DNA from: Marivita geojedonensis
GTDB lineage: Bacteria > Pseudomonadota > Alphaproteobacteria > Rhodobacterales > Rhodobacteraceae
DNA: 64,000 nucleotides
Direction: 5' to 3'
Assembly: GCF_002115805.1 (NCBI RefSeq)
Contig: NZ_JFKC01000006.1
Span: 62,001 to 126,000, forward strand
Made by a program: the position numbers and the translations under genes. The notes beneath the pieces were generated by a model. That model ran no database searches. It worked only from the letters and a program-made list of their open reading frames with translations, and was not told the origin of the DNA. This document shows, in pieces, positions 13,601-46,346 of the stretch; positions within the stretch are counted from its first letter, which is position 1, and the number at the start of each line of letters is the position of its first letter.

Positions 13601-13641
13601 CCGTTTGCGTCAACGCAAACGGTGGATGGGTCGACCCATCC
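13601..13641 (+). repeat. Tandem-palindrome element, copy A
   Basis: Two adjacent palindromes separated by 1 nt: 13601-13622 (10-bp arms CCGTTTGCGT / ACGCAAACGG around CA) and 13624-13641 (GGATGGGTCGACCCATCC, a perfect palindrome). It begins 9 nt after the serine hydrolase stop codon. Architecture and GTCRAC cores are shared with copies at 27937, 30112 and 46153, while the stem sequences differ in a compensated way. Confidence 0.85.
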
Positions 13642-27837: not shown

Positions 27838-27921
27838 ATGGACGTGTTTTTCATTCTGCCGATCATCATCCTGCTCGTGTTGCTGGCATGGTGCCTTGTG
27901 CAATTGAAAGACGGCCTCTGA
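27838..27921 (+). CDS. Predicted 27-residue single-pass membrane peptide
   Basis: A tiny gene encoding MDVFFILPIIILLVLLAWCL followed by VQLKDGL: nearly all of it is one transmembrane helix with a short polar tail. Support comes from a consensus AGGAGG site 6 nt before the ATG, a clean stop, and no overlap with another gene. It recalls small subunits or modulators of membrane complexes such as CydX or KdpF by size, but I see no sequence match to them and no partner gene nearby. Copy B of the tandem-palindrome element begins 15 nt after its stop. Confidence 0.7.
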   Translation: MDVFFILPIIILLVLLAWCLVQLKDGL

Positions 27922-27936
27922 TCGGGATCTGCGCGC

Positions 27937-27977
27937 GCTTTCCGTCAACGGAAAGCCGCGATGCGTCGACGCATCGC
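27937..27977 (+). repeat. Tandem-palindrome element, copy B
   Basis: Palindrome 27937-27956 (arms GCTTTCCGT / ACGGAAAGC around CA) and perfect palindrome 27958-27977 (GCGATGCGTCGACGCATCGC), 1 nt apart. It follows the small membrane peptide gene by 15 nt and precedes the ilvC terminator on the other strand. Same architecture as copies A, C and D. Confidence 0.88.
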
Positions 27978-29656: not shown

Positions 29657-30111
29657 TCGACCTCGACGACACCGACCGGGCCATGATCCGCGCCGTGGCT
29701 GCTGATGCCCTGATCAGTGCCGGGGCACTGGGGCGCCAGTTGGGCCTGAGCCAGCCAGCCGCGTGGCGTCGCCTGAAACGGCTGCGCGATGCGGGTGTGT
29801 TCCGTGGCCCGCGCCTTGATCTCGATGCACAGGCGCTTGGCTTCAGCGTGACGGTGTTTCTAGGCGTGAAACTGGCCACCAAGGGGCGTGTGAGCCTTGA
29901 GGACTTCGAACGCGCCGTGACGGCGATCCCTGAGGTGCAGACGGTGGAGCACGTGTTGGGCCTCTACGATTACCGCCTGCGCGTTGTCGCCCGCGACATT
30001 GCCGATTTCGAACGCGTGCTGCGCCGCCGGATCATGACCCTGCCGGGTGTGGGGAATATCGACGCCAATGTGCTTCTGTCCGAAGAACGTCTGCCCGGTC
30101 CCATCGGCTGA
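29653..30111 (+). CDS. Lrp/AsnC-family regulator, second of a pair
   Basis: A 152-residue paralogue of the preceding gene: helix-turn-helix LGRQLGLSQPAAWRRLKRLR at about 29-48, then a ligand domain with EHVLGLYDYRLRVVARDI. It starts at a GTG overlapping the previous stop (GTGA). The two proteins differ strongly in the recognition helix, so they probably see different DNA sites or one helix dominates in a hetero-oligomer. Copy C of the tandem-palindrome element starts directly after its stop. Confidence 0.9.
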   Translation: MIDLDDTDRAMIRAVAADALISAGALGRQLGLSQPAAWRRLKRLRDAGVFRGPRLDLDAQALGFSVTVFLGVKLATKGRVSLEDFERAVTAIPEVQTVEHVLGLYDYRLRVVARDIADFERVLRRRIMTLPGVGNIDANVLLSEERLPGPIG

Positions 30112-30153
30112 GGCGATGCGTCGACGCATCGCCGTTTCGCGTTGACGCGAAAT
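30112..30153 (-). repeat. Tandem-palindrome element, copy C (inverted)
   Basis: Perfect palindrome 30112-30133 (GGCGATGCGTCGACGCATCGCC) followed by 30135-30152 (arms TTTCGCGT / ACGCGAAA around TG). On the minus strand the order is the same as in copies A, B and D, with the TTT palindrome first. It therefore reads as lying 10 nt downstream of the minus-strand Hint gene rather than belonging to the Lrp gene. Confidence 0.85.
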
Positions 30154-32646: not shown

Positions 32647-32712
32647 GCATATTTGGAAAAGAAGAAGCAGGGGACGCGCGCTGTCTCCTGCTTCTTCTTT
32701 TTTCAAATATGC
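32647..32712. terminator. Long imperfect palindrome acting as bidirectional terminator
   Basis: Arms of about 29 nt run from 32647 to 32675 and from 32683 to 32712 with a 7-nt loop, and include GAAGAAGCAGG pairing with CCTGCTTCTTC. A TTTTTT run follows the core stem on the plus strand and TTTTCC on the minus strand. It ends the aminotransferase gene and can stop minus-strand transcripts too. Confidence 0.85.
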
Positions 32713-43995: not shown

Positions 43996-46146
43996 ATGGG
44001 CACGCGCATCGACCGCCACGGATTGCAGATCGATCAAACGCTTTTTGACTTCATCGAAGGGCAGGCGCTGCCCGGCACCGGTGTTGAGGCCGATGCCTTC
44101 TGGGAGGCGCTCTCGACGCTCGCGCATGAGTTCGGCCCCAGAAACACAGACCTGCTCAAGATCCGCGACGACCTTCAGACCAAGATCGACGAATGGCACA
44201 TCCGCCACCGCAACCATCCGCACGACCACGAAGCCTACAAGGCATTCCTGTCGGAAATCGGCTACCTGTTGGATGAAGGCGATGATTTCGAGATCGAAAC
44301 CGCCAACACCGACCCCGAGATCGCATCCGTGCCCGGCCCGCAGCTTGTGGTGCCGATCACCAATGCCCGGTATGCCCTGAACGCCGCAAATGCCCGCTGG
44401 GGCAGCCTGTATGACGGGTTCTACGGCACCGACGCGATGGGCACACCCGCACCCAAGGGCGGATACGACAAGGGCCGAGGCGCCCGCGTTGTTGCGCGTG
44501 CCCGCGTGTTCCTGGACGAGGCATTCCCGATCGACGGGGGCAGCCATGCCGACGTGCGGCGGTATTACGTCCATAACGGCGCGCTGCTGATCGATGACAT
44601 GCCGCTCGCGCAGCCCGAAAAGTTCATCGGCTACAAAGGCCACCCGAAAGCGCCCGACGCGGTGCTGCTGCGCAACAACGGGCTGCATGTCGAACTGGTG
44701 TTTGATCGCACCCATTTCATCGGCAGCCGAGATCAGGCGGGTCTGGCCGATGTGCGCCTCGAAAGCGCCGTGTCCGCGATCATGGATTGCGAAGATTCGG
44801 TCGCCTGCGTCGATGCCGAGGACAAGGCGCTGGCTTATGCCAACTGGCTTGGCCTGATGAAGGGCGATCTGGCCGACACGTTTGAAAAGGGCGGCAAGAC
44901 CGTCACCCGCGCGCTCAACCCCGATCTGAGCTACACATCGCCGGACGGAAAGGGCGAGGTGACGATCAAGGGCCGCGCGCTGATGCTGGTGCGCAATGTG
45001 GGCCACCTGATGACGAACCCGGCGATCCTGCTCAAGGACGGGTCCGAAATTTACGAAGGCCTGATGGACGCGATGATCACCACGCTCATCGCGAAACATG
45101 ACCTGTCCAAGACGAGCGGCGCGCGCAACTCGGTCAATGGGTCGGTCTACGTGGTGAAACCCAAGATGCACGGGCCGGACGAAGTGGCGTTTGCCGACGA
45201 GGTCTTCACCTTTGTCGAAAAGGCGCTGGGCCTGCCGCAATACACCGTCAAACTGGGCATCATGGACGAGGAGCGCCGCACGTCGGTGAACCTCAAGCAG
45301 TGCATCCGCGCCGCCAAGCACCGGGTTGCCTTCATCAACACCGGCTTCCTCGACCGCACCGGCGATGAGATCCACACTTCGATGGAAGCGGGTCCGTTCA
45401 GCCGCAAGGACTTCATCAAGCGCAAGGCCTGGATCGGCGGCTACGAAAACCGCAACGTGGATATCGGCCTTGAATGTGGTCTCAGTGGCAAGGCGCAGAT
45501 CGGCAAAGGCATGTGGGCCATGCCCGACATGATGGCGGCGATGCTCGAGCAGAAGATCGAGCACCCGAAATCCGGCGCCAACTGCGCCTGGGTGCCGTCG
45601 CCGACCGCTGCCACGCTGCACGCGCTGCACTATCACAAGGTCGATGTGTTTGCGGTGCAGGACAAACTGCGCAAGGGCGGCCGCCGCGCGCATGTGGACA
45701 CGATCCTCGATATTCCGCTGGCGGCATTCCAGAAATGGTCGAAAGACCAGATCACACGCGAGGTCGAGAACAACGCACAGGGCATCCTTGGCTACGTGGT
45801 GCGCTGGGTCGATCAGGGTGTCGGCTGCTCCAAGGTGCCGGACATCAACAACGTGGGCCTCATGGAAGACCGCGCCACCTGCCGCATCAGCGCCCAGCAC
45901 ATCGCCAACTGGCTGCACCATGACGTGGTGTCGAAGGACGAGGTAATGGAGATTCTGCAGCGCATGGCGGTAGTTGTGGACGAACAGAACGCAGGCGATC
46001 CGGCCTATACGCCGATGGCGCCGGGCTTCAGTACAATCGCGTTCAAGGCCGCCTGCGATCTGGTCTTTGACGGCCGTGTGCAACCCTCGGGCTATACCGA
46101 GCCGGTCCTGCACCAACGCCGTCTGGAACTGAAAGCCGCCAGCTGA
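43996..46146 (+). CDS. glcB: Malate synthase G
   Basis: Condenses glyoxylate and acetyl-CoA to malate. At 716 residues this is the large single-chain G isoform. Diagnostic segments are [57 protein letters not shown] and [18 protein letters not shown] 43996 follows GTGAGGGAAGACGG. A strong palindrome lies upstream as a likely operator, and a tandem-palindrome element and a hairpin terminator lie downstream. No isocitrate lyase gene is in the window. In this group glyoxylate also arises from the ethylmalonyl-CoA pathway or glycolate. Confidence 0.97.
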
Positions 46147-46152
46147 GACGGC

Positions 46153-46194
46153 GCGTTTCGGTCAACCGAAACGCACGATGCGTCAACGCATCGT
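46153..46194 (+). repeat. Tandem-palindrome element, copy D
   Basis: Palindromes 46153-46174 (arms GCGTTTCGGT / ACCGAAACGC around CA) and 46175-46194 (arms ACGATGCGT / ACGCATCGT around CA) directly abut. It starts 6 nt after the glcB stop and runs into the terminator stem. Same layout and orientation as copies A and B. Confidence 0.88.
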
Positions 46195-46224
46195 GGCCCG
46201 GCGAAAACCGCTTTCCCGGGCCAC
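46193..46224 (+). terminator. Hairpin terminator after glcB
   Basis: A 9-bp stem GTGGCCCGG / CCGGGCCAC with a 14-nt loop, followed by a modest ATTTGCATTT tract. It begins inside the last two bases of the tandem-palindrome element. Confidence 0.65.

Positions 46225-46269: not shown

Positions 46270-46346
<77 letters not shown>

What the first reader, a model, noticed from the sequence alone, without database searches (positions are those of the whole stretch)
13601..13641. Family of two-palindrome elements just after stop codons
Four elements (13601, 27937, 30112, 46153) share one plan: a palindrome with TTT...AAA arms, 0-1 nt, then a GATG...CATC palindrome, each centred on GTCRAC. The stems differ between copies but stay paired: TTTGCGT/ACGCAAA, TTTCCGT/ACGGAAA, TTTCGCGT/ACGCGAAA and TTTCGGT/ACCGAAA. 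That is covariation, so structure is probably selected. All eight hairpins would present a UCRA loop closed by G-C. Each lies 6-15 nt past a stop codon in the same orientation. I do not recognise it as a named repeat family. It could be an mRNA 3'-end element, a REP-like mobile unit or a protein site.
Basis: partly seen in the sequence, partly recalled or inferred. Interest (0 to 1): 0.8.

Follow-up and report, generated by a model that had tools for sequence, protein, structure and literature searches.

The report
Twin-hairpin repeats after stop codons
A marine bacterial genus carries dozens of short two-hairpin DNA repeats placed just after genes; their stems change letters but stay paired, one was gained cleanly and some species seem to be losing them, which makes them a good test case for what such repeats do at gene ends.

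Summary
The four elements are real: each is two palindromes centred 21 nt apart (TTT..AAA and GATG..CATC arms). One of the four is inverted and shows UUGA, not UCRA, on the + strand. The own genome has 55 places by covariance model, 44 of them strong (40 bits or more); of the 44, none lies between divergent genes and 36 lie within 15 nt of a stop codon. Orientation is mixed (24:20). The family is in all 17 genomes of the genus, identified as Marivita through named contigs. Stems covary, also at one orthologous place occupied in 16 of 17 species. The element at 30112 is a clean 46-nt gain; 11 of 11 comparable congeners lack it. Four genomes with 0-5 exact forward matches sit apart on the tree, each beside a sister with 11-25. 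I read this as a REP-like 3'-end element, spread by copying and maintained by a lineage-specific factor. It is not a GTAG or CGTC REP: no unpaired tag, and 13 of 17 genomes lack a Y1 transposase. Three other genera of the family carry runs of palindromes, mostly TCGA-centred, about 24 nt apart. The molecular act (termination, 3'-end protection or ribosome effect) is inferred, not shown.

The parts
13601..13622 (+). element 1, TTT..AAA palindrome CCGTTTGCG-TCAA-CGCAAACGG
13624..13641 (+). element 1, GATG..CATC palindrome GGATGGG-TCGA-CCCATCC; lies between convergent gene ends (13591 on +, 13651 on -)
27937..27956 (+). element 2, TTT..AAA palindrome GCTTTCCG-TCAA-CGGAAAGC, 15 nt after a small + strand reading frame (stop 27919-27921, read by eye)
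27958..27977 (+). element 2, GATG..CATC palindrome; a terminator-like site on the - strand lies at 28021-27998
30112..30133 (-). element 3 (inverted), GATG..CATC palindrome GGCGATGCG-TCGA-CGCATCGCC, directly after TGA 30109-30111
   Evidence: absent in 11 of 11 comparable congeners
30135..30152 (-). element 3 (inverted), TTT..AAA palindrome TTTCGCG-TTGA-CGCGAAA as read on +
46153..46174 (+). element 4, TTT..AAA palindrome GCGTTTCGG-TCAA-CCGAAACGC, 6 nt after TGA 46144-46146
   Evidence: occupied in 16 of 17 species
46174..46195 (+). element 4, GATG..CATC palindrome CACGATGCG-TCAA-CGCATCGTG; a tRNA gene follows at 46270-46343

Best explanation
This is a REP-like dispersed element of the genus Marivita: two palindromes, 21 or 22 nt centre to centre, about 42-46 nt in all, at the 3' ends of genes, right after stop codons and most often between convergent genes. 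SHOWN: copies spread (a clean 46-nt gain at 30112, tandem arrays elsewhere). SHOWN: stems change letters yet stay paired, between copies and at one orthologous place. SHOWN: four genomes on separate branches have few exact matches but many weaker ones, and of eight of their copies looked at one is fully paired. INFERRED: those four are losing the family, and the element is the site of a dispensable, lineage-specific factor, probably a protein that recognises the folded hairpin or the palindrome; where it is lost, copies decay together. INFERRED: because each palindrome reads nearly alike on both strands, one copy can give both converging mRNAs a double hairpin at the end, and the likely effect is on the mRNA end (termination, protection from 3' exonucleases, or slowed release at the stop). 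How copies are made is unknown; the own genome has no Y1 (RAYT-type) transposase match.
For: Copies: 21 exact matches per strand against control 0; 94 model matches at E<=0.01 on both strands, 150 of 2627 candidates scored, condensed by hand to 55 places, 44 at 40 bits or more. Genus: 17 of 17 genomes by model; exact pattern in 16 of 17, and in 0 of 44 genomes outside the genus. Names: 86 loci from a scan of named genomes, all titled Marivita or Rhodobacteraceae/alphaproteobacterial MAG; loci of 11 handles match them over the 300 nt compared, 8 of these titled Marivita. Placement, own 44: 24 convergent, 20 co-directional, 0 divergent, 36 within 15 nt of a stop. Named 100 (80 of 86 loci searched): 0 divergent although divergent gaps hold 16,688 of 66,759 intergenic nt, 0 inside genes. 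Pairing: 57 double-change cells against 17.9 shuffled, 0 of 500; own 44: 681 of 704 stem cells Watson-Crick. Orthologous site: 15 double-change cells against 4.6, 0 of 500. Gain: 0 of 11 congeners with both flanks hold the 30112 element. Decline: exact forward matches G002 5, G005 3, G010 1, G015 0 but 39, 51, 17 and 28 model matches; tree sisters G000 21, G013 14, G014 25, G006 11. Of eight top or exact copies from the four, one has all 16 pairs.
Against: No transcript or binding data. Orientation to the gene is not fixed in the own genome (24:20), which weakens a directional RNA signal. G-U pairs are few (13 of 704 cells are GU or AC), whereas in Bacillus cereus terminators GU is the most frequent intermediate (PMC5381666, abstract); that leans to a DNA-level palindrome. 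No raised T content follows the distal hairpin. Canonical terminators are somewhat rarer beside elements in convergent gaps (24 of 112 against 36 of 102) but commoner in co-directional ones (21 of 69 against 30 of 197). At the orthologous site one of five covariation measures does not exceed shuffles (further pair types, 138 of 500), and non-pairs there do not cleanly mark the four declining genomes: G016 3, G005 2, G010 2, G012 2, and one each in G001, G003, G002, G013, G006, G014; none in six. Support for the four sister pairs is uneven (0.98, 0.80, 0.68, 0.99). The model was built from 23 own copies chosen by the exact GATG pattern, so the inner pairs of the second hairpin could hardly vary. 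Gene conversion between copies could mimic maintenance.
Confidence: 0.5

Rival explanations
1. Plain selfish REP-like element: copies survive after stop codons because insertions elsewhere are removed, pairing is needed only for copying, and the host gains nothing.
For: Genus-restricted, uneven copy numbers, clean gain and tandem arrays, decayed copies. Di Nocera et al. 2013 (PMC3733652; abstract and sections 6, 8, 14, 15 and 17 part 1 read) describe REPs with the same placement and species-to-species swings.
Against: At 46153 the element is present in 16 of 17 species and its hairpins pair through double changes, while the stretch between it and the tRNA gene's conserved upstream region differs freely to the eye; a neutral old copy should decay. 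The 0-15 nt distance (36 of 44) is tighter than mere avoidance of genes and promoters needs.
Confidence: 0.27
2. Double-stranded DNA site: each palindrome binds a protein dimer (nucleoid, segregation or transcription-blocking protein), two dimers two helical turns apart on one face; RNA folding is irrelevant.
For: Centre distance 21 or 22 nt in 143 of 143 elements, though the finder searched only 19-24; orientation-independent (24:20) and few G-U pairs; in G352 142 of 169 palindrome centres are TCGA and 19 GCGC, both self-complementary, in a set partly selected for TCGA.
Against: A sequence-specific dimer should fix arm letters, yet outer arm pairs use all four Watson-Crick types. In the own genome loops vary while arms stay paired, and in G352 8 of 169 centres are other tetramers over intact arms. 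G352 spacing is 24, not a whole number of turns. Placement at gene ends has no simple DNA-level reason.
Confidence: 0.2
3. Unconventional bidirectional transcription terminators that happen to have been copied around.
For: 24 of 44 own copies between convergent genes; in reverse orientation the GATG hairpin is followed by the TTT of the next arm and scores as terminator-like at 46195-46174; some G221 palindromes have outer A/T runs.
Against: No raised T content after the distal hairpin; the scan's total hits equal shuffles (16 against 15.8); decline of the whole family in four genomes would leave many genes without ends.
Confidence: 0.25

Closest known systems
REP sequences, GTAG-tagged (E. 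coli, Pseudomonas), with RAYT transposases
   Same: Short palindromes, often paired, intergenic, close to the 3' ends of ORFs, convergent and same-direction gaps preferred, uneven between species (PMC3733652, sections read).
   Different: No conserved unpaired head in the flank consensus; no Y1_Tnp (PF01797) match in 13 of 17 genus genomes, the own one included; stems vary with pairing kept; 21/22-nt spacing.
CGTC-tagged REPs, mostly alphaproteobacterial (Di Nocera et al. 2013, PMC3733652)
   Same: 8-9 bp stems, 4-5 nt loops, dimers, no dedicated transposase, most near ORF 3' ends.
   Different: Their CGTC is an unpaired tag at the stem base, stems almost invariably start with A-T pairs, and most have a CCA tail (section 6). 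Here CGTC is paired at the apex and no such tag or tail is conserved.
E. coli REPs within 15 nt of a stop codon that stall ribosomes (as cited in PMC12306157, passages read; the primary paper was not read)
   Same: Same distance to the stop codon.
   Different: Effect not tested here; no sequence comparison with E. coli REPs was run.
Intrinsic terminators with compensatory evolution (PMC5381666, abstract read)
   Same: 3'-end hairpins with double changes.
   Different: No T-tract, few G-U pairs, dispersed by copying.

Membership tests
REP, GTAG superfamily | unpaired GTAG at one end of the stem | tested here: not met
   no conserved tetranucleotide outside either hairpin in any of the four orientation/context groups; flanks in alignment A1 not conserved
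REP, GTAG superfamily | associated RAYT (IS200/IS605-type Y1 transposase) | tested here: not met
   PF01797: no match in the own genome; match in 4 of 17 genus genomes, although 17 of 17 have elements. Whether those four genes lie beside elements was not examined
REP, CGTC superfamily | unpaired CGTC (or TGTC, CCTC) tag, A-T pairs at the stem base, CCA tail | tested here: not met
   CGTC is inside the paired apex; outer pairs use all four types; no tail in the consensus
REP-like repeats in the broad sense | short palindromic, multi-copy, extragenic, near ORF 3' ends | tested here: met
   44 strong own copies, 0 divergent, 36 within 15 nt of a stop; 0 of 100 named copies inside genes
MITE | terminal inverted repeats and target-site duplication | tested here: inconclusive
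   one clean comparison shows no duplication to the eye; one site is too few, and terminal repeats were not searched for by a tool
intrinsic terminator | GC hairpin followed at once by a T-tract | tested here: not met
   T frequency after the distal hairpin is not raised
any Rfam family | match above gathering score | tested here: not met
   only the tRNA at 46270-46343 in the window

The most novel reading that the evidence does not exclude
The Marivita element is one genus's version of an undescribed class in its family: runs of two to six palindromes with a mostly self-complementary centre (usually TCGA) and a near-constant 21-25 nt period, placed at gene ends, whose arms may take many sequences provided they stay paired. 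A lineage-specific trans factor maintains them, and genomes that lose the factor let all copies rot.
Probability: 0.3. Interest if true: 0.8.

Novelty: new variant of a known kind. Interest (0 to 1): 0.6.

Why it matters
What REP-like repeats do, and why some species keep them and others lose them, is an old open question (my judgement, recalled). Here the same gene ends can be compared across 17 species: gained, kept with compensated stems, or decayed. Four declining genomes next to richer sisters give a direct screen for the responsible factor. The parallel runs in other genera, with different arms but the same centre and a similar period, point to the features that matter.

Tried and rejected
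RAYT mobilisation: rejected for the own genome. Phage or plasmid carriage: no match in phages, only a 30-nt partial match in two Methylibium plasmids, 0 in viral contigs for the Marivita pattern and for a G352 pair, none in plasmids for a G352 run. Known RNA family: none. Replacement of canonical terminators: mixed result. Strand-specific G-U excess as a sign of RNA selection: GU against AC was 12 against 6 in co-directional copies and 4 against 11 in convergent ones, too few and inconsistent. Orientation bias: 73:26 in the pattern-selected named set but 24:20 in the own set, so not claimed. Target duplication: one clean site only, not resolved.

Literature: no paper on these repeats among the listings (open-access library only). 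The papers listed were seen as a listing (12 of 21); I take their 'palindromic repeats' to be CRISPR mentions, without opening them. PMC3733652: abstract, found passages and sections 6, 8, 14, 15 and 17 part 1. PMC12306157: abstract and found passages. PMC5381666: abstract and section list.

Rows dropped: one search gave 94 matches; I condensed them by hand to 55 places and counted the 44 at 40 bits or more; of the 11 weaker places 2 lay in divergent gaps. The model's 23 seed copies are among the own copies. One search covered 80 of the 86 named loci and gave 119 matches; the 19 below 40 bits were left out, leaving 100; one duplicate was removed (143 of 144). The named loci were chosen by an exact pattern, so their inner stem letters and loops are biased.

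Mended on checking: non-pairs at 46153 are not confined to the declining genomes; the count of full-length stretches in the 20-genus survey is 15, not 16; G352 distances to stops are looser than in Marivita.

Full report
THE OBSERVATION. The four elements exist as described with three corrections: the third (30112) is inverted, its TTT hairpin reads UUGA on the + strand, and distances to the stop are 0-15 nt. Each is two perfect palindromes whose centres are 21 nt apart. RNA folding gives the two hairpins with z of -4.5 to -5.0. Three lie between convergent genes, the fourth between a gene and a tRNA gene.

FAMILY SIZE AND RANGE. In the own genome (4.31 Mb, 73 contigs) the GATG pattern matches 21 times on each strand with no match for the reversed control. 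A covariance model from 23 own copies chosen by that pattern (A1, R1) gives 94 matches at E<=0.01, 150 of 2627 first-look candidates having been scored. Both strands of a copy often match, so I condensed these by hand to 55 places, 44 at 40 bits or more. The model finds the family in 17 of 17 genomes of the genus. The exact pattern is in 16 of 17 of them and in 0 of 44 others. In 295 genomes, one per genus of the family and scored with stricter filters, the own genome and three others had a match at E<=1e-6. A scan of named genomes with a stricter two-hairpin pattern gave 86 loci (80 printed, all), titled Marivita or only Rhodobacteraceae or Alphaproteobacteria MAG. Loci of 11 of the unnamed genus members match these over the 300 nt compared, 8 of them titled Marivita, hence the genus; the own genome itself was not named.

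PLACEMENT. Genes were called with a codon model trained on the window. Of the 44 strong own copies 24 lie in convergent gaps, 20 in co-directional gaps, 0 in divergent gaps; 36 are within 15 nt and 39 within 25 nt of the nearest stop codon. Of 100 copies in 80 of the named loci, 0 lie in divergent gaps, which make up 16,688 of 66,759 intergenic nt, and 0 lie inside genes; 4 lie after the last called gene of a locus. Orientation relative to the nearest stop is 24:20 in the own set and 73:26 (GATG first) in the named set; the second set is pattern-selected and contains orthologues, so I claim no bias. When a GGGG..CCCC hairpin lies close by, it is on the TTT side in 25 of 25 cases, of 143 elements, so the element has a polarity of its own.

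PAIRING. On A1, 95.9% of stem cells pair, with 57 double-change cells against 17.9 in shuffles (0 of 500). In the 44 own copies 681 of 704 cells are Watson-Crick, 13 GU or AC, 10 other; the two outer pairs of each arm use all four Watson-Crick types. Centre distance is 21 in 93 and 22 in 50 of 143.

HISTORY AT FIXED PLACES. 46153: occupied in 16 of 17 species, absent in G015. Across species 15 double-change cells are seen against 4.6 in shuffles (0 of 500), though further pair types do not exceed shuffles (138 of 500). G000 and others have CAC/GTG outer pairs; G003, G011, G008, G004 and G013 have CAG/CTG (G013 with the outermost pair lost); G001 shows a C-C mismatch between the two states. Six species have no non-pair, six have one, three have two and one has three. 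13601: of 9 congeners with both flanks, 6 are occupied (G002 decayed, G008 with a mismatch, G001 with three tandem copies) and 3 empty. 27937: of 11 congeners, intact in G011 and G012; in G004 an element lies beside an extra gene, with a CCAA loop; decayed in G008, G002, G001 and G013; none in G016, G010 and G014; G006 has another arrangement, not fully read. 30112: 0 of 11; five congeners have a gap exactly 46 nt shorter than the own genome, the others 23-45 nt shorter (all). Tandem runs of up to four copies occur in other species.

DECLINE. G002, G005, G010 and G015 have 5, 3, 1 and 0 exact forward matches but 39, 51, 17 and 28 model matches. A tree from two coding stretches puts each beside a sister with 21, 14, 25 and 11 exact forward matches; supports 0.98, 0.80, 0.68 and 0.99, while some other nodes are near zero. 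Eight of their top or exact copies were looked at: one (G015) has all 16 pairs Watson-Crick, the rest have at least one other pair, and their letters stay near the Marivita consensus rather than forming a new one. In G002 the 13601 and 27937 copies are broken as well. Non-pairs at 46153 alone do not separate these genomes from the rest. I infer several independent losses of whatever keeps copies intact; a dispensable trans factor is the simplest account, but that is inference.

OTHER GENERA. Weak hits in G221, G263 and G275 proved mostly to be runs of palindromes with other arms. A spacing pattern over 394 family genomes stands out from its control in G352 (45/48 against 0/0), G221 (13/14 against 0/1) and G248 (10/10 against 0/0), less so in G177 (11/5 against 1/1); G177 and several with lower counts were not followed. 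In G352, 45 runs of 2-6 palindromes have period 24 in 102 of 124 intervals; centres are TCGA in 142 and GCGC in 19 of 169; the 4-nt linkers are 76 different sequences of 102. The finder required six paired positions and one TCGA centre, and most loci were chosen by the pattern, so of the pairing only the outer two positions (99.4 and 96.4%) are a test. 2 of 45 runs lie in divergent gaps, and only 12 of 42 with a measured stop distance are within 15 nt. In stretches of G221 and G248, 14 runs, 0 divergent (the G248 stretches were chosen around pattern hits). In G221 an unrestricted count gave 11 close palindrome pairs against 3 in a shuffle, 10 of the 11 involving a TCGA or TCAA centre. In contig starts of 20 other genera (15 of full 20 kb, 5 shorter) no such pair was found. 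Whether these families share descent with the Marivita one or are convergent is not known.

WHAT IT IS NOT. No Y1 transposase match in the own genome; 4 of 17 genus genomes have one. No GTAG or CGTC unpaired tag (definitions from PMC3733652). No T-tract. No Rfam family. No phage or plasmid carrier found.

JUDGEMENT. Firm: a real, genus-restricted, REP-like two-palindrome family at gene 3' ends with compensated stems and a documented gain. Less firm: decline as loss of a factor, and host function through the mRNA 3' end. The paucity of G-U pairs and the mixed orientation keep a double-stranded DNA role open.

Noticed in passing
L287 just before the element at 2001-2060; also L009, L267, L089: A second palindromic insert (TCGTCCATTGG..TTGAACCAATGG..) sits inside a GGGG..CCCC hairpin next to an element in L287; its core is in 4 of 129 sources searched.
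   Followed up: partly
beside 25 of 143 elements, e.g. L020, L007: A GGGG..CCCC hairpin, in several cases followed by an ACCCCGAGGTATTT-like stretch, lies only on the TTT side of the element, in no case on the GATG side.
   Followed up: partly
G352 (loci L371-L380, L387-L443): Runs of mostly four 20-bp palindromes, period 24, linkers variable, centres TCGA or GCGC; 45 runs counted in the stretches read.
   Followed up: partly
L130 4709-4974, L131 6771-7030, L135 1388-1791, L209: Tandem arrays of three or four elements in other Marivita species; in L131 the second palindromes differ within one array.
   Followed up: partly
window 32657-32701: A long near-perfect inverted repeat (AAAAGAAGAAGCAGGGGAC / GTCTCCTGCTTCTTCTTTT) after a + strand gene, of another kind.
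   Followed up: no
G177: Pattern counts 11 forward and 5 reverse against 1 and 1 in the control suggest another genome with palindrome runs.
   Followed up: no
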